Assembly (NCBI GenBank): GCA_035295165.1
Contig: DATGJN010000047.1
Coordinates: 1-64,000 of the forward strand
Direction of reading: 5' to 3'
Length of the DNA stretch: 64,000 nt
Source: a bacterium
Lineage (GTDB): Bacteria > Sysuimicrobiota > Sysuimicrobiia > Sysuimicrobiales > Segetimicrobiaceae
Shown here in pieces: positions 55,991-63,901 of the stretch; the first letter of the stretch is position 1; the number at the start of each line of letters is the position of its first letter. The translations under genes were made by a program, and so were the position numbers. The notes under the pieces were generated by a model that was not told the DNA's origin, did no database searches, and saw only the letters and a list, made by a program, of their open reading frames with translations.

Positions 55991-56479
55991 CTACTTCTCG
56001 TGCTTGGGCCAGTGCACCAGAAGAGCGTCGATCTTGCGCGCAACGGTGCCCACCGGGACCAGGGTCGGCCCGGCGTTGCGGACCAGCGCGACGACGTTGG
56101 CCCGCGCAAACAGCACCATCGTGTCGTCGAGCCCGAACGCCACATCACCCGGGGCGTGCTTGTCGGTGAGCCGTTCGACGGCGCCGGATTGCATGTTGCC
56201 GAGCGCGTCCAACAGTTGGGTATGCGCCGCCTTGACCGAGGCACACTCGAAGACGTCGACGGCGAGCACCTCGCTCGTCGATTCGCCGCGGCGCCACAGC
56301 GATCGAATTGTCGTCGTGTCGGCGTGCTCGGCCCGCTGCGACCGCACCAAGGTCCACCCGCGCATCTCCAACCGGTCGAGGCTCACGCCCTCAAGCACCC
56401 GCCGGCCCTGACCGCCGCGCCCGCGCCACTTGCCGGCGTCGTATCGCTTCTCGAGGAATCGCCGTTGCTCGACGCTCAT
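55991..56479 (-). CDS. Hypothetical protein, partner of the transglutaminase-like gene
   Basis: 162 residues, not recognised. The N-terminus is basic (EQRRFLEKRYDAGKWRGRGG); the remainder is alpha/beta with VLAVDVFECASVKAAH, a segment MVLFARANVVALVRNAG and a short C-terminal ALLVHWPKHEK. No signal peptide or membrane helix. AGGAGG precedes the ATG at 56479, 10 nt after the preceding gene's stop, so the two form an operon. A structural or immunity-type partner is possible but unproven. Confidence 0.55.
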   Translation of the reverse strand: MSVEQRRFLEKRYDAGKWRGRGGQGRRVLEGVSLDRLEMRGWTLVRSQRAEHADTTTIRSLWRRGESTSEVLAVDVFECASVKAAHTQLLDALGNMQSGAVERLTDKHAPGDVAFGLDDTMVLFARANVVALVRNAGPTLVPVGTVARKIDALLVHWPKHEK

Positions 56480-56489
56480 CGGAGTCCTC

Positions 56490-57602
56490 CTACACCACGG
56501 TCCGTCTCTGGCGCGTGCCGGGTTGCGGGTTGCAGTTCGGCCGGCCGGCCGGGGTGGCGAGACGGTCGCGATAGAGCAGGTCGCCCGGATTGCCGAACCG
56601 CAGATCCTGCGGGAGCAACGGGACGTGCGGAGCGGTCGTGGGATCGCTGTCGCCGTCGACCCGGAGGCACGCGTCGTACACGTCGTCGCTCGCCGTGCAG
56701 GCGCCCTCCCACGCGACCTCGTGATAGCTGAACGCTCCCCACCCGCACGCGGTCTGCCAGACGCTGCTGCCGATCGCGAGCAGTTCGTTGAGCGCGAACC
56801 CCCACCCCATCTTCGACTGCCACAAACGGCACCCGAGCGCGTTGGCAAACGTCGAGACGATGGTCGCGCAGTCGCTGCAGTTCACGTACACGCCGTTGCC
56901 GATTCCCCCGCGCAGCCGATCGACGAACGCGGTGCAGTCGAACGCGCCCCAGCTGTAGTGTGAGCTGCCGCCGCCGGGGCAATCATAGGTGACCACGCTG
57001 GGACCCAACGCGTAGACGTGCTGCGTGACGAGCGCGGCGGCCATGTCCCGGGATGTCGCACCCTCCGCCCAGCGGCACGCGTAGTCGAGCACGTCCGTCC
57101 AGGGGAGCTGCGTGTTGCCGGCGGTGTAGGGCGCCTGCTTCCACGGGTCGTCCGGCACGTCGAGCACGACGTACAATCGGTGGCGGGTCGTCGCGAAATG
57201 GTGCCACGAGCGGTGCGGCGCCGTCCGGTATTCCCACTGCCAGTCGACGTCCCAAACCCCCACGTGGCCGCGCGCGGAAGGCGGATCGATGAGTTCGAAC
57301 GTGACGAACCCCGTCTGCCCGTTGACGAAGTTCACGGGACGGGCCTTGACGTGATCCTTGACCCGCACCTCGATGAAGGCGACGCTCGGATCGGTCGAAC
57401 TCATCGAGACCTGGATCGAGATCGGGTTCCCGTGGGCCGGCCCCACCGCATACGCCGCGCGGGAATCTTCCGGATTGACGCAGACAAAGCGCCGCCACTC
57501 GGGGACCGCAATCATGCGCGTCGCGTTCTCGCGGATGTTCAGCGCGTCGTGGGTGGCGGCGTTCGCGTCATAATTGAACTTGATCGCCTCGACCGCGATC
57601 AT
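56490..57602 (-). CDS. Unknown protein with a transglutaminase-like Cys-His-Asp core
   Basis: 370 residues. The N-terminal 150 residues look beta-rich (NPISIQVSMSSTDPSVAFIE), then WTDVLDYACRWAEGA begins a helical segment. The core contains Cys242/Cys245 (YVNCSDCATIVSTFANALG), His294 (FSYHEVAW) and Asp310 (DDVYDACLRVDGD), the spacing of the transglutaminase-fold cysteine hydrolases. No signal peptide. AGGAGG is present upstream. Followed by a 162-residue unknown. It may be a protease or crosslinking enzyme; no experimentally characterised family was recognised. Confidence 0.55.
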   Translation of the reverse strand: MIAVEAIKFNYDANAATHDALNIRENATRMIAVPEWRRFVCVNPEDSRAAYAVGPAHGNPISIQVSMSSTDPSVAFIEVRVKDHVKARPVNFVNGQTGFVTFELIDPPSARGHVGVWDVDWQWEYRTAPHRSWHHFATTRHRLYVVLDVPDDPWKQAPYTAGNTQLPWTDVLDYACRWAEGATSRDMAAALVTQHVYALGPSVVTYDCPGGGSSHYSWGAFDCTAFVDRLRGGIGNGVYVNCSDCATIVSTFANALGCRLWQSKMGWGFALNELLAIGSSVWQTACGWGAFSYHEVAWEGACTASDDVYDACLRVDGDSDPTTAPHVPLLPQDLRFGNPGDLLYRDRLATPAGRPNCNPQPGTRQRRTVV

Positions 57603-58156: not shown

Positions 58157-58906
58157 CTACCCGAACAGCCCCCGCGCAAGCAGATTGAGGCCCGCCAGGA
58201 ACACGAGCGCGAGCACGATCCGGCTGAACGTCTCCGGGCGGAGCGAGTCTTGGAGTCGCAGCCCGGCCCAGGTGCCAACGGCCATCGGGGCGCACGCCAG
58301 CACGGCCGTCCCCATCACCGGTCCTCCGTAGAGCCCGAGCCGAAGATACGATACGAACTGTGCGATGTTCCCGACGAAGAACATCATCGTCATCCAGAAC
58401 ACGAACGGGCGCTTCTCGAGCCGCAGCATGTGGAGATAACTCGCGACCACCGGCGAGAAGATCCCGGTCGAGCCCCCGAGCACCCCTGCGGCAAGACCGA
58501 CCACGGGCCCCGCCCGATGTCCGGCCGCCGGGGGGATCCGCTGGACCAACCGGAACGCCGTGGCGACGACGTACAGCGCCGATACCGCGCCCACAAGAAT
58601 CGACAACGTGCGCGGGTTCATGGCGGTGATCAGAAGCGCGCCCGCGACGACGCCCGCGGCCAGGGCGGCGAGCGTGGCGATGAACGGCCGCGCGTCGGTC
58701 GGGCCGCCCGGGCCCCGGCCCACCAGCATGAGGTTGCTGAGGAGCGTCGGGAACACCACGAGGGGAATCGCGATGTGCGGGCCGAGCACGATCGAGAGCA
58801 GCGGGATGGCGAGGAGCGGAAACCCGAACCCGATCGCGCCCTTGATCGTCGCGGCGACGCACACGATCACGGCGATGACCGCGAGGTGCGTCGCGTCGTA
58901 CGTCAC
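58157..58906 (-). CDS. TauE/SafE family membrane permease
   Basis: 249 residues, many hydrophobic helices. IKGAIGFGFPLLAIPLLSIV and GVLGGSTGIFSPVVASYLH are the two pseudo-repeat signature segments of TauE/SafE transporters, which export or import sulfonates and other small anions. The GTG overlaps the aroA stop (GTGA), so it is translated with the shikimate genes. Link to aromatic biosynthesis is unclear. Confidence 0.88.
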   Translation of the reverse strand: MTYDATHLAVIAVIVCVAATIKGAIGFGFPLLAIPLLSIVLGPHIAIPLVVFPTLLSNLMLVGRGPGGPTDARPFIATLAALAAGVVAGALLITAMNPRTLSILVGAVSALYVVATAFRLVQRIPPAAGHRAGPVVGLAAGVLGGSTGIFSPVVASYLHMLRLEKRPFVFWMTMMFFVGNIAQFVSYLRLGLYGGPVMGTAVLACAPMAVGTWAGLRLQDSLRPETFSRIVLALVFLAGLNLLARGLFG

Positions 58907-60192
58907 GTGCCGGTCACGCCGCGGAGGGTCTCCTCGAACTCCGGAAACGACGTCTGGATGCACGCCGGATCGTCGATCGTCACGGGACCGTCCGCGCACA
59001 GGCCGGCGACTGCCATCGCCATCGCGATCCGGTGATCGCCGCCGCTCGCAACACGCCCGCCCCGCAGGCGCGCCACGCCCGTGATCGCGAGCCCGTCCGG
59101 CCGCGGCTCGACCGCGGCGCCGAGCCGGCCGAGTTCCCGCGCGAGCGCGGCGATGCGGTCGACTTCCTTGACGCGCAGTTCGGCGGCGTCGCGGATCAGC
59201 GTCTCACCCTCGGCCAGGCACGCGGCCACGGCGATCACCGGCAGCTCGTCGATCGTGCGCGGGATCAGCGCGCCGCCGATCGTCACGCCGCGGAGGCGCG
59301 AGGCCCGCACGGTCACGTCGCCGACTGGCTCCCCGCCCTCGTCGCGCTCTCCCCGCACCCGCACATCGGCGCCCATCAGCCCAAGCACATCGAGCACACC
59401 GGTGCGGGTCGGGTTGAGGCCGACATCTTCAACCGTCACCTCCGAACCCGGGACGAGCGCAGCCGCGACCAGCAGGAACGCGGCCGAGGACAGGTCGCCC
59501 GGCACGCGCAACGCGGTGCCGCGGAGCGCGGCCGGCCCGCTCATGCGGACCGCGAGTCCGTCACGCCGAACCGGCACGCCGAAGGCGCCGAGCATCCGCT
59601 CCGTGTGGTCCCGGCTCTGCGACGGCTCGCGGACCTCGGTCTCGCCATCCGCGAAGAGCCCCGCCAGCAGCACCGCGGATTTGATCTGCGCACTCGCCAC
59701 CGGCGTCTCGTACGCGATGCCCCGCAGGCCCCCGCCGTCGATCGACAGCGGCGCGAGGCGCCCGCCGCTCCGCCCACTGATCCGCGCGCCCATCCGGCGG
59801 AGGGGCGTGGCGACCCGGTCCATCGGGCGGCGTCGAATGCTCGCATCGCCGGTGACGACGCTGTGAAACGGCTGGCCGGCAAGGATCCCGGACAGGAGGC
59901 GAATCGTCGTGCCGGAGTTGCCGACATCGAGGACCTGATCCGGCTCCGTGAGCGCGCCGCCGTGGATCACGAGGCGGGTGCCGTCGTCGTCCACCCGCAC
60001 GCCCATCGCCTGCATGCACGCGAGCGTGGCAAGACAGTCATCGCCACGCAGGAACCCGTCCACGGTGGTCGTGCCCGCCGCGAGGCCGCCGAGGAGCGCG
60101 GCGCGGTGGGAGATGGACTTGTCCCCGGGCACGCGCACGGCCCCGCGCAGCGACGACCGCGGGGTGACGACGAGCGACGCGGACGGGGTCAC
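58903..60192 (-). CDS. aroA: 3-phosphoshikimate 1-carboxyvinyltransferase (EPSP synthase)
   Basis: 429 residues. VPGDKSISHRAALLGGLAAG and DVGNSGTTIRLLSGILAG are the shikimate-3-phosphate and PEP binding regions. GDASIRRRPMDRVATPLRRMG and the late VKEVDRIAALARELG are also conserved. It condenses PEP with shikimate 3-phosphate. The motifs fit the Bacillus-like group rather than the enteric one. The GTG start overlaps the aroH stop. Confidence 0.96.
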   Translation of the reverse strand: MTPSASLVVTPRSSLRGAVRVPGDKSISHRAALLGGLAAGTTTVDGFLRGDDCLATLACMQAMGVRVDDDGTRLVIHGGALTEPDQVLDVGNSGTTIRLLSGILAGQPFHSVVTGDASIRRRPMDRVATPLRRMGARISGRSGGRLAPLSIDGGGLRGIAYETPVASAQIKSAVLLAGLFADGETEVREPSQSRDHTERMLGAFGVPVRRDGLAVRMSGPAALRGTALRVPGDLSSAAFLLVAAALVPGSEVTVEDVGLNPTRTGVLDVLGLMGADVRVRGERDEGGEPVGDVTVRASRLRGVTIGGALIPRTIDELPVIAVAACLAEGETLIRDAAELRVKEVDRIAALARELGRLGAAVEPRPDGLAITGVARLRGGRVASGGDHRIAMAMAVAGLCADGPVTIDDPACIQTSFPEFEETLRGVTGT

Positions 60193-60560
60193 GAGCGGGA
60201 CGCCAGATCGGGACGGAGCTGCGTCGCCCCGCCCAGGTACACGTGCCGGACCTCATCCATCGTCTTCGTCGTGTTGATGAGCATCAGCACACGCACGCAG
60301 CGCTGGAGCGCGCCGGGGACGGCGATCTCCTGCATGCACATCAGCGGCACCTGCGTCCATCCGGGAAGACGGCGGCCGGCCTCGGCCGGGAACACGGCGT
60401 TGAGATCCGGAGTCATCGTGAAGATCACGCCGGCGATGTCGTCGCTGTCGACCTCGTTCTCGCTCACGATGCGCTGGAGCAGCTCGAAGGTGGCGCTCAG
60501 GATCGCCTGCTCCGTGTTCGCGTCGACGGTGGTCGCGCCGCGAATCCCGCGGAATCGCAT
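60189..60560 (-). CDS. aroH: Chorismate mutase, AroH type
   Basis: 123 residues, the trimeric AroH (Bacillus-type) fold rather than the all-helical AroQ fold. FRGIRGATTVDANTEQAIL, DIAGVIFTMTPDLNAVFPAE and the Arg in RCVRVLMLINTT match the conserved active-site segments. Converts chorismate to prephenate. It overlaps aroA by 4 nt and lies 117 nt after aroQ. Confidence 0.93.
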   Translation of the reverse strand: MRFRGIRGATTVDANTEQAILSATFELLQRIVSENEVDSDDIAGVIFTMTPDLNAVFPAEAGRRLPGWTQVPLMCMQEIAVPGALQRCVRVLMLINTTKTMDEVRHVYLGGATQLRPDLASRS

Positions 60561-60677
60561 CGCACTCCTCCTCGCGCCGGCGCGCTCCGCCCGACTCGGC
60601 TGTTGCTTCGACCGGCGCTCCAGGCCATCCTCTGCCGGCGCGCCGCGCGACCCGGTCGCGCGAGGCCGGACCTCGCG

Positions 60678-61121
60678 TCAGGTCCGCGGATGAGCCAGCG
60701 CCGCCGCCGCCCGGAGGCCCAGCAGGTAGCTGTCCGCCCCGAATCCGGCGACCTGCCCGGTCACGACCGGCGAGATGACCGACACGCCGCGGAAGGCCTC
60801 GCGCGCGTGGATGTTCGAGACGTGCACCTCCACGACCGGAAGCGCGATCGCGGCGATCGCGTCCCGCAGCGCGATGCTGTAGTGCGTGAACCCGGCGGCG
60901 TTGAGCACTACCGCGCCGAATTCGCCGCGTGCGGCGTGCAACCGGTCGATGATCGCACCTTCGTGATTCGACTGGAACGTCTCGATGGCGACGCCCAACT
61001 CGCCGGCCAGCGCCTGGAGTCGCCGGTTCACCTCGGCGAGCGTCACGGTGCCGTAGAGGTGCGGCTCCCGGCTGCCCAGCAGGTTGAGGTTGGGCCCGTG
61101 GATCACCAGCACCTTAACCAT
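60678..61121 (-). CDS. aroQ: 3-dehydroquinate dehydratase, type II
   Basis: 147 residues. VLVIHGPNLNLLGSREPHLY, QSNHEGAIIDRLHAA, LNAAGFTHYSIALRDAI and VEVHVSNIHAREAFR are the conserved type II dehydroquinase segments, with the catalytic Tyr in HLYG and His in EVHVSN. The ATG at 61121 lies inside the aroKB stop region (overlap 8 nt), with GGAGGAGGTG upstream. Confidence 0.95.
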   Translation of the reverse strand: MVKVLVIHGPNLNLLGSREPHLYGTVTLAEVNRRLQALAGELGVAIETFQSNHEGAIIDRLHAARGEFGAVVLNAAGFTHYSIALRDAIAAIALPVVEVHVSNIHAREAFRGVSVISPVVTGQVAGFGADSYLLGLRAAAALAHPRT

Positions 61122-62763
61122 CGCCAAGCACCTCCTCCAGCAGGGGTGTCGGAACGTCGTCGCGCACCACCGTCCGGCCGATCTCGACCGGCAGCACGAA
61201 CCGCAGGCGGCCGGCGCGCGCCTTCTTGTCGAGCGTCATTGCGGCGGCGACCGCCTCTGGCGCCGGCGGCCGCCGGAGCCGCAGCTCGGCGAGGCGCACC
61301 GGCAACCCGGCACCGCGGAGGAGCGCCGCCTGCCGGTGCAACAGCGCCGGCTCGCACAACCCGAGGCGCACGGCGATCCGCGCCTCGAGCGACATACCGA
61401 CGGCGATCGCCTCGCCGTGCGTCAGCCCGCGGTATCCCGCGGCGGCTTCGACGCCGTGCCCGATCGTGTGCCCGTAGTTGAGCACGATCCGCCCGGCCTC
61501 CTCCCGCTCGTCCCCGGAGACCACGTCCGCCTTGTACGCGGCGCAGCGCCCCACCACGATCGCCAGCGCCTCGGGGTCGCGGCGGAGCACGGCGCCGAGC
61601 CGGTTCTCCAGGTACGCGAACAGGTCCGGCGCGCCGATCACGCCGGTCTTGATCACCTCGGCCAGGCCCGACCGCACCTCGCGCGCCGGCAGCGACCCGA
61701 GCAGGTCGATGTCCGCGACGACGAGCACCGGTTGGTGCACGGCGCCGATCAGGTTCTTGCCGCGGGGGTGGTTGACCGCCGTCTTCCCGCCGATCGCGGC
61801 GTCGACCTGCGCGAGCAGCGTGGTCGGCACGGCCGCCCACGCGATACCGCGCAGGAACGTCGCGGCCACGAACCCGCCGAGGTCACCCGCCACGCCGCCA
61901 CCGAGCACGATCAGGGCGGAGCCGCGGTCGAGCCGCGCCTCCAGCAGCCGGTCATAGACGCGGTTCGCGGCGCGGAGGCTCTTGCTCGCCTCGGACGCCG
62001 GGACGGTGATCGTGACCGCCTCGTACCCGGCGTCGCGCAGCGACGCCGCGAGGCGGCCGCCGTACAGCGCCTCGAGCCGGGGGTGGGTCAGCACCGCGAC
62101 GCGCCCGGCGACCCCGCAGTCACGCAAGTGGGCGCCGACGCCGCCGATTGCGCCCACGCCGATGCGCACGTCGTAGCCGCGCGACCCGGTCGCCACGCGC
62201 ACCACGCGCTCGGGCACCGGCCCGGTGTTGCGCGGATCGGTCCCGCCGTTCCGCCCCTTCCACGTGGCCGCGAACGCCTCAACGCAGCGGGCGGCCTCCT
62301 CCGCGGAGACCGACGACGTGTCCAGGACCAGGTCGGCGTCGTGATACAGTGGGCTGCGCTCGGCGAGCAGGCGCCGGACACCCGCCTCGGGGTCCACCCC
62401 GAGCAGCGGCCGATCGACACCGCCGCCCACGCGGGCGAGAATCGCCGCGGGCTCCGCGCGCAGCGCGACGATCATCCCGTTCCGGCGGAGGTGCGCCATG
62501 TTTGCGGGGTTGAGCACGACGCCGCCCCCGGTGGCGATGACCGTGCCTTCCCGCTCCCCCACGGCGGCCACGATCTCGCTCTCGATCCGGCGGAACGTCG
62601 CCTCGCCGTCCTCGGCGAAGATGCGCGGGATCGACCGGCCGGCGCGCTCCTCGATCAGCGCGTCGGTGTCCACGAACGGACGGCCGAGCCGGGTCGCGAG
62701 CGCCCGGCCGACCAGGGTCTTGCCCGTGCCCATGAAGCCGATGAGCACCACGTTGTGGCGCAC
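61114..62763 (-). CDS. aroKB: Fused shikimate kinase-3-dehydroquinate synthase
   Basis: 549 residues. Residues 1 to about 175: shikimate kinase with P-loop IGFMGTGKTLVGRAL, FVDTDALIEERAG and GGGVVLNPAN. Residues from about 190: dehydroquinate synthase with LGGGVAGDLGGFVAAT, VPTTLLAQVDAAIGGKT, LAEVIKTGVIG and NYGHTIGHGVEAA (zinc/NAD site). The two steps are not consecutive (AroB is step 2, AroK step 5), so the fusion mainly ensures co-expression. GTG start at 62763. Confidence 0.96.
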   Translation of the reverse strand: MRHNVVLIGFMGTGKTLVGRALATRLGRPFVDTDALIEERAGRSIPRIFAEDGEATFRRIESEIVAAVGEREGTVIATGGGVVLNPANMAHLRRNGMIVALRAEPAAILARVGGGVDRPLLGVDPEAGVRRLLAERSPLYHDADLVLDTSSVSAEEAARCVEAFAATWKGRNGGTDPRNTGPVPERVVRVATGSRGYDVRIGVGAIGGVGAHLRDCGVAGRVAVLTHPRLEALYGGRLAASLRDAGYEAVTITVPASEASKSLRAANRVYDRLLEARLDRGSALIVLGGGVAGDLGGFVAATFLRGIAWAAVPTTLLAQVDAAIGGKTAVNHPRGKNLIGAVHQPVLVVADIDLLGSLPAREVRSGLAEVIKTGVIGAPDLFAYLENRLGAVLRRDPEALAIVVGRCAAYKADVVSGDEREEAGRIVLNYGHTIGHGVEAAAGYRGLTHGEAIAVGMSLEARIAVRLGLCEPALLHRQAALLRGAGLPVRLAELRLRRPPAPEAVAAAMTLDKKARAGRLRFVLPVEIGRTVVRDDVPTPLLEEVLGDG

Positions 62764-62770
62764 GTCCGTC

Positions 62771-63901
62771 TCAGGCCTCCGGCCCCGTGCGCACCCAGCG
62801 CGCGTGCGCCTCGTACGCCTGCCGCATCTCCGCCAGGCTATCGCCGCCGAACTTCTCCACCATCGCGTCGGCGAGGACGATCGCGGCCATCGCTTCCCCG
62901 ATCACGCCGGCGGCCGGGACCGCGGTCACGTCGCTGCGGACCACCGCCGCCTCCACGCGCTCCTTGGTGACGATGTCCACGGACGCGAGCGGGCTGCGGA
63001 GCGTGCTGAGCGGCTTCATCGCCACGCGGACAACGAGGGGTTCGCCCGTGGTCATGCCGCCCTCGGTGCCGCCGGCCTGGTTGGTCGCGCGGTAGAAGCC
63101 TCGCTCCGGATCGTAGAAGATCTCGTCGTGCGCCGCCGACCCGGGGAGGCGCGCCTCCGTGAAGCCCTCGCCGATCTCGACGCCCTTCATCGCGTTGATG
63201 GACATCATCGCCTGCGCGAGGCGGCCGTCGAGCCGCCGGTCCCAGTGCACGTAGGTGCCGAGCCCCACCGGCACCCCGGTGACCACGACCTCGAAGACGC
63301 CGCCGAGCGTGTCGCCCTTCTCGCGCGCCTCGTCGATCGCCGCGATCATGCGGGCCTCGGCCTCCGGATCCACGCAGCGCAGGGGCGACTGCTCGGCGAT
63401 CGCGGAGATGTCCTCGGGCCGCTCGGGCCGCCGGGTCGCGGCGATGCCTCCCAACTCCACCACGTGGCTGCCCAGCGCGATCCCGAACTGCCCGAGCAGC
63501 GCCCGGCAGACGGCGCCGGCGGCCACGCGCGCCGTCGTCTCGCGCGCGCTGGAGCGTTCGAGGACGCGCCGGACATCGTTGAAATGGTATTTCAACGCGC
63601 CCGCGAGATCCGCGTGCCCGGGACGCGGCCGGGTGAGCGGCGGCTCCTCCCGCCGCCAGTCCTTGTTGCCGATCGCGAGCCCCACCGGCGCGCCGATCGT
63701 GGTACCGCCCATCACGCCGCTGTGGATCTCCGCGCGGTCTTTCTCGATCTGCATCCGGCCGCCGCGGCCGTACCCTTGCTGCCGCCGCGCGAGCTGGACA
63801 TTAATCTCGTCCTCCGACAACGGCACGCCCGCGGGCAGGCCCTCGACGATCACGAGGAGCCCCCGCCCGTGTGACTCGCCCGCCGTCAGGAATCGAACCA
63901 T
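62771..63901 (-). CDS. aroC: Chorismate synthase
   Basis: 376 residues. [61 protein letters not shown] and [15 protein letters not shown] are the FMN and substrate binding signatures. Makes chorismate from EPSP using reduced FMN. Starts 4 nt after the aroE stop and ends 7 nt before aroKB. Confidence 0.97.

What the first reader, a model, noticed from the sequence alone, without database searches (positions are those of the whole stretch)
55991..57602. Unrecognised pair: transglutaminase-like Cys-His-Asp protein plus a 162-residue partner
The 370-residue protein has a plausible Cys245-His294-Asp310 triad with a beta-rich N-terminal half, no signal peptide and no identified family. The 162-residue neighbour starts 10 nt later with a strong ribosome binding site. 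This may be a new enzyme-partner (effector-immunity, crosslinking or processing) system.
Basis: partly seen in the sequence, partly recalled or inferred. Interest (0 to 1): 0.55.

Follow-up and report, generated by a model that had tools for sequence, protein, structure and literature searches.

The report
Mobile transglutaminase-like enzyme with conserved partner
Two neighbouring bacterial genes encode an enzyme that looks built like animal protein-crosslinking transglutaminases and a helper protein that travels with it across distant bacterial phyla, but what the pair does is not yet known.

Summary
The two genes are real and form a conserved pair. The 370-aa protein (56490-57602, minus strand) has no Pfam, NCBIfam or PADLOC match, yet relatives turned up in Actinobacteria, Qipengyuania, Bacteroidetes, Planctomycetota and myxobacteria. 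In all 11 distinct loci a relative of the 162-aa protein follows directly downstream; in a 195-genome phylum sample both occur in the same 3 genomes. Neither was found in 42 other genomes of the window's order, so the pair is accessory and probably horizontally spread. An AlphaFold2 model from 11 sequences is usable to about residue 260. Its only Foldseek matches at E <= 0.001 are six transglutaminase chains, though with loose superposition. A motif profile from ordinary transglutaminase cores puts the nucleophile at Cys242 (1st of 349 positions), not Cys245 (145th). Cys242, His294 and Asp310 are invariant in 11 of 11, as is Cys245. Effector-immunity is possible but not favoured: the partner is one family everywhere, often enlarged, and in four loci (two lineages) the pair sits with a tail-collar protein and other shared genes. 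Catalysis, reaction and function are unproven.

The parts
56490..57602 (-). gene for the 370-aa transglutaminase-fold protein: N-terminal beta-sandwich (residues about 2-146), then catalytic core
57156..57602 (-). N-terminal beta-sandwich domain (residues 1-149)
   Evidence: strands from 2-8 to 134-146, ten-residue mean pLDDT 65-93; matches RhoGDI-type sandwiches and the N-terminal part of animal transglutaminases
56877..56879 (-). codon of Cys242, the predicted nucleophile, at the start of helix 242-254
   Evidence: invariant 11 of 11; rank 1 of 349 against a transglutaminase motif profile; helix start
56721..56723 (-). codon of His294, predicted catalytic His
   Evidence: invariant 11 of 11, in motif HE[VI]xW; region poorly modelled
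56673..56675 (-). codon of Asp310, predicted catalytic Asp
   Evidence: invariant 11 of 11, in motif [YFW]D[AG][CA]; region poorly modelled
56480..56489 (-). 10-nt intergenic stretch with a GAGGA ribosome-binding site for the partner
   Evidence: read by eye
55991..56479 (-). gene for the 162-aa partner protein

Best explanation
The pair is a mobile two-gene module. Gene 1 makes a thiol enzyme with the transglutaminase fold, laid out like the first two domains of animal transglutaminases (beta-sandwich, then core). Cys242 would attack a peptide bond or glutamine amide to form a thioester, helped by His294 and Asp310, with release to water (protease or amidase) or to an amine (crosslinking). 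Gene 2 makes a dedicated partner that acts in the same step, as adaptor, chaperone or brake. In the larger loci the pair would process or crosslink the proteins encoded beside it. Shown: conserved pairing, conserved candidate triad residues, fold resemblance for the N-terminal domain and the first half of the core. Inferred: catalysis, the reaction, the partner's role and the substrate.
For: Partner relative directly downstream in 11 of 11 distinct loci; four of these built the profile (window, L014, L015, L016), the other seven match it independently at E 9e-18 to 5e-5, and L017's partner runs into an assembly gap. Same 3 of 195 genomes hold enzyme and partner. Distance matrices of the two families correlate, r 0.72, 0 of 5000 permutations as high. 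The six Foldseek PDB matches at E <= 0.001 are all transglutaminases, best E 4e-5. VIA aligns TG2, TG3 and FXIII over 219-273 residues of both domains, Z 5.6-8.4, rmsd 4.2-6.6. With the Cys column left out, a transglutaminase motif profile ranks Cys242 1st of 349 positions in the window protein, and the equivalent Cys 1st or 2nd in 9 of 11 members. Two distant proteins (L032, L033) link to the family by their N-terminal half (hhalign E 8e-10) and to ordinary cores by their Cys motif (E 0.0017, probability 15%). Four loci (L015, L016, L020, L021) share a ~205-aa family, a ~750-980-aa family and a tail-collar protein.
Against: No sequence search reaches a known transglutaminase: 0 of 11 members match Pfam at E <= 1, no PDB transglutaminase by profile, and hhalign of the catalytic half with 29 ordinary cores gives only E 0.1, probability 0.6%. 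Foldseek superposition is loose (TM by query 0.31-0.37, rmsd 9-14 for the transglutaminases in the top nine); PAD4 and pilin chains follow at E 1e-3 to 1e-2. The VIA output warns that Z under 8 may mean only a common arrangement, and RhoGDI reaches Z 8.5 on the sandwich alone. Residues 263-272 and 280-370, with His294 and Asp310, have pLDDT under 50, so triad geometry is untested. MAFFT with L032/L033 puts their Cys on Cys245, and the profile link to L032/L033 stops before the Cys. In L015 and L016 neither Cys stands out (first Cys ranks 15 and 17, second 11 and 16). The matrix correlation leans on two close pairs (L015-L016, L020-L021) and does not control for relatedness. L015 and L016 are of one genus, so the larger gene set is seen in two lineages. 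By eye the window, L018, L019 and L022 show only the pair, so the substrate idea may not apply here.
Confidence: 0.55

Rival explanations
1. Effector-immunity pair: the enzyme is a toxin that modifies or cuts target proteins in competing cells, and the partner blocks it in the producer.
For: Adjacent small downstream gene; scattered, cross-phylum distribution; no signal-peptide-like start; partner diverges faster than the enzyme (e.g. window to L017 61% enzyme, 38% partner). Transglutaminase-like toxins are known: EAT14 of Chitinophaga rupis is toxic to E. coli and yeast (PMC11297309, passages read) and Tox-TGase domains occur in polymorphic toxins (PMC3482391, passages read).
Against: The partner is one family in 11 of 11 loci. 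It is about 236-257 aa in several members and 516 aa in L014, where it is fused to a domain that is a separate gene in L024. No DUF4157 or other named delivery domain was listed by Pfam for the proteins scanned. Four loci share further genes.
Confidence: 0.22
2. Thiol protease or amidase with its own inhibitor or activator, working inside the producing cell; crosslinking is not involved.
For: Members of this fold have been identified as proteases, and the authors of PMC11297309 leave open that EAT14 is one (passages read). The conserved HE[VI]xW and D[AG] motifs fit either reaction.
Against: Nothing here separates hydrolysis from transfer; no substrate is known.
Confidence: 0.18
3. Structural protein with a transglutaminase-like fold but no catalysis, like the inactive domains described in polymorphic toxins (PMC3482391, passages read).
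For: LamG fusion in L014 (PF13385, PF02210) and the tail-collar company point to binding and assembly.
Against: The three predicted catalytic residues are invariant in 11 of 11; the inactive domains in that paper had lost one or more.
Confidence: 0.05

Closest known systems
Animal transglutaminases (TG2, TG3, factor XIII A)
   Same: N-terminal beta-sandwich followed by a core with the Cys at a helix start; order Cys, His, Asp (order in the animal enzymes recalled); best fold matches
   Different: 370 aa, no room for the two C-terminal barrels of the animal enzymes (recalled); no sequence match to Pfam or to PDB transglutaminases; dedicated partner gene
Transglutaminase-like superfamily of microbes (PF01841; Makarova, Aravind and Koonin 1999, seen only in a reference list)
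   Same: motif around the nucleophile: Cys, small residue at +4 (A or S in 22 of 24 cores), Gly at +15 (18 of 24)
   Different: below detection by the Pfam profile in 11 of 11 members
EAT14, transglutaminase-like toxin linked to an extracellular contractile injection system, Chitinophaga rupis (PMC11297309, passages read)
   Same: transglutaminase-like domain in a soil bacterium
   Different: EAT14 has an N-terminal DUF4157 domain; none was found here, and the passages read name no such partner
TgpA of Pseudomonas aeruginosa (PMC3507681, search listing with title and start of abstract only)
   Same: bacterial protein with a eukaryotic-like transglutaminase domain
   Different: no comparison was made

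Membership tests
Transglutaminase fold / superfamily | core with the nucleophilic Cys at the start of a helix, then His and Asp on strands | tested here: inconclusive
   helix 242-254 starts at Cys242 and the top Foldseek matches are transglutaminases, but superposition is loose, the His/Asp half has pLDDT under 50 and no coordinates were measured
Transglutaminase fold / superfamily | conserved Cys-His-Asp triad in sequence | tested here: met
   C242, H294 and D310 invariant in 11 of 11; Cys register supported, contradicted by the alignment
Pfam Transglut_core PF01841 | match above the family's cut-off | tested here: not met
   0 of 11 members match any Pfam family at E <= 1
Animal-type transglutaminase | N-terminal beta-sandwich ahead of the core | tested here: met
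   well-modelled sandwich at residues 2-146; VIA matches to TG2/TG3/FXIII run from residue 1 or 4 to 287 or further, Z 5.6-8.4
Animal-type transglutaminase | two C-terminal beta-barrels (feature recalled) | tested here: not met
   the protein ends at residue 370, 60 residues after Asp310
Transglutaminase | forms isopeptide bonds | not testable with these tools
   needs an assay
Toxin-immunity pair | enzyme toxic alone, neutralised by the partner | not testable with these tools
   needs an assay
Toxin-immunity pair | adjacent, co-inherited genes | tested here: met
   also true of many non-toxin pairs
eCIS effector | eCIS structural genes near the effector gene | tested here: inconclusive
   by-eye reading of ORF starts in 4 of the 8 stretches fetched (L034, L035, L036, L039) showed no obvious sheath or tube gene; no family search was run on them

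The most novel reading that the evidence does not exclude
A horizontally spread bacterial system in which an animal-type, two-domain transglutaminase with an obligatory partner crosslinks or matures a self-assembling, collar-bearing protein structure; the window carries the minimal enzyme-partner form. The family would be a candidate prokaryotic relative of the sandwich-plus-core layout of animal transglutaminases.
Probability: 0.2. Interest if true: 0.75.

Novelty: new variant of a known kind. Interest (0 to 1): 0.5.

Why it matters
The enzyme, its partner and most of the genes seen beside it have no Pfam or NCBIfam name in the scans made here; the exceptions are the collar and LamG domains. 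If active, it would add a partner-dependent branch of transglutaminase-fold enzymes with the domain order of the animal enzymes. Bacterial transglutaminases are used in food processing (titles and abstracts listed), so a new branch with a dedicated partner could be of practical interest. It also gives a handle on an uncharacterised gene set shared by myxobacteria and Bacteroidetes.

Tried and rejected
Single-sequence AlphaFold2 failed (mean pLDDT 38). Single-sequence scans found no relative in genome contigs (7 stretches matched a pattern) or viral contigs (1 stretch). A degenerate motif pattern gave 5 viral stretches, none encoding a relative (tblastn best E 0.15). With the alignment, 93 viral stretches matched a pattern and 0 were relatives. 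Plasmid collection: no match with three enzyme queries.

Weak halovirus match: P0003 resembles residues 7-70 of the window protein, but of 11 family members only the window protein scores (E 1.4e-6 in a small database; the other ten 1.5 to 37). I treat it as chance. The family profile, which holds the window protein, did score P0003 above 200 shuffles (E 0.0029 against 1.3), so this is not certain.

One search listed two further weak matches in 386 genomes (E 0.005 and 0.007): the frame at L004's match is a threonine-synthase-like protein by eye; for L005 only the open frames were listed.

One search was meant to find the empty site in related genomes, but the ABC permease used belongs to a large family and has no clear ortholog there (best 54%), so the insertion site stays unknown.

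The window's own genome has 0 matches to PF01841, so it gave no ordinary transglutaminase to compare with; those were used.

The peptidase-like gene beside L017 (by eye) is on the other strand and I did not see it in the other loci read; left out. A longest-ORF gene list gave false genes in GC-rich loci; one search corrected part of this.

Papers: five searches listed nothing that describes this family or pair. They cover only an open-licence library and the words named there.

It also gave the VIA range as 7.1-8.4; one further transglutaminase row is 5.6.

Full report
Observation. The 370-aa and 162-aa reading frames are at the stated places on the minus strand. The stop of the first is followed after 10 nt by the start of the second, with GAGGA in between. 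Codon-position composition of the first fits coding DNA.

Known families. The 370-aa protein matched nothing in Pfam, NCBIfam or PADLOC at E <= 1; the partner had only a Pfam match at E 0.23, under its cut-off. One PHROGs match (E 0.0017) and a tblastn match to haloviruses (E 0.04) involve one short stretch that ten of the eleven family members do not share. A PDB sequence search gave nothing.

Distribution. The enzyme gene was found in 1 of 100 genomes, the window's own; the other 42 of its order (2 of the same genus, 9 more of the family; some incomplete) had none. The partner was likewise found in 1 of 46. A draw of 386 genomes gave the own genome and two weak matches. In the phylum of G070, 3 of 195 genomes hold a relative. 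An alignment of these four found 8 loci in genome contigs out of 45 stretches that matched either of two peptide patterns, so the number is a lower bound: two Actinobacteria MAGs, Qipengyuania, Chitinophaga, Mucilaginibacter, a Planctomycetota MAG, Archangium violaceum and a Bacteroidetes MAG. Draws from the families of the Chitinophaga and Mucilaginibacter genomes (244 and 251 genomes, those two included) gave no further close relative and two distant ones. The family is thus rare, scattered and cross-phylum. In the enzyme tree a myxobacterial and a Bacteroidetes sequence are sisters (L014 with L024, 96/97) and the partner tree agrees (97/95, with L014 flagged as a long branch), which fits joint horizontal transfer.

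Pairing. A partner relative lies directly downstream in 11 of 11 loci (alignments). Four of them built the profile; the other seven match at E 9e-18 to 5e-5. In L017 its 3' part meets an assembly gap. In the 195-genome sample the partner profile finds exactly the 3 genomes that hold the enzyme. Distance matrices correlate (r 0.72, 0 of 5000 permutations), though two close pairs weigh in this.

Fold and active site. With 11 sequences AlphaFold2 gives mean pLDDT 67 and pTM 0.71; ten-residue means are 54-93 up to residue 260 and under 55 beyond. All six Foldseek matches at E <= 0.001 are transglutaminases, with low TM-scores and large rmsd. The structural re-alignment spans sandwich and core at Z 5.6-8.4, but RhoGDI sandwiches reach 8.5 for the N-terminal domain alone, and such Z values can be commonplace. 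In sequence, profile comparison with 29 ordinary cores from eight genomes (30 loci, L043 dropped because its frame was misread) is not significant (E 0.1), but its best local match is the motif with Cys242 on the catalytic Cys. A motif profile from the 24 cores whose Cys aligned, with the Cys column left out, ranks Cys242 1st of 349 positions and Cys245 145th. The equivalent first Cys ranks 1st or 2nd in 9 of 11 members; in L015 and L016 it ranks 15th and 17th and the second Cys 11th and 16th. L032 and L033, two proteins from the Chitinophaga family draw with signal-peptide-like starts (by eye), share the N-terminal half (hhalign E 8e-10) and carry a transglutaminase-like Cys motif (E 0.0017, probability 15%). 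A MAFFT alignment with them prefers Cys245, which I weigh less than the motif test.

Surroundings. In the window only the pair is seen, between a TauE/SafE-like exporter gene and a peptide-ABC operon (names by eye). In L015, L016 (one genus), L020 and L021 the pair has shared company: a ~205-aa family (weak across phyla, best E 2e-5), a ~750-980-aa family (E 6e-38 to 5e-33 across phyla) and a tail-collar protein (PF07484 in L016 and L020). The content is shared, but the order of blocks differs: 205s, large, collar, enzyme, partner in the myxobacteria; 205s, another gene, enzyme, partner, large, collar in the Bacteroidetes. In L014 and L024 the enzyme is the C-terminal part of a 1075- or 1086-aa protein; L014's carries LamG domains, L024's was not scanned.

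Reading. The best reading is a thiol enzyme of the transglutaminase fold with a dedicated partner, spread as a module. Whether it crosslinks, cuts or poisons is open. I favour a role with a co-encoded partner or substrate over effector-immunity because the partner family is constant, often enlarged, and accompanied by shared genes in two lineages. The probability of the exact mechanism is moderate.

Literature. Passages of PMC11297309 and PMC3482391 were read; other papers were seen only in listings. No description of this pair was listed in five searches.

Noticed in passing
L017, L018, L019, L022 (enzyme homologs), around residues 89-121: An insert with a fairly hydrophobic stretch sits in the N-terminal sandwich of four homologs (best 19-residue mean hydropathy 1.86 in L022, 1.49 in L019, 1.27 in L017, 1.13 in L018); the window copy lacks it. 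It could be a membrane-touching loop.
   Followed up: partly
L015, L016, L020, L021; plasmid loci L089-L093: The ~750-980-aa neighbour family recurs in 13 plasmid records, one of them haloarchaeal, beside a patatin-like phospholipase in two of the five neighbourhoods read, one of these with an M15 peptidase as well. No enzyme or partner relative lies in those five. It may be a scaffold that works with varied enzymes.
   Followed up: partly
L014 and L024: A ~330-aa protein is a separate gene upstream of the enzyme in L024 but its relative is fused to the partner in L014 (E 8e-27), which is further support for one system.
   Followed up: partly
L017 3254-6738: The partner frame continues past an assembly gap into an unrelated-looking stretch, and a papain-like peptidase gene (by eye) lies just beyond on the other strand.
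   Followed up: no
window 58903-63901: Minus-strand run of shikimate-pathway genes read by eye: aroA, a chorismate-mutase-like gene, aroQ, a fused aroK-aroB and aroC.
   Followed up: no
L032 and L033: Distant homologs from the Chitinophaga family draw share the sandwich and a transglutaminase-like Cys motif; each is followed by a ~280-300-aa frame, and the two frames look alike by eye.
   Followed up: partly
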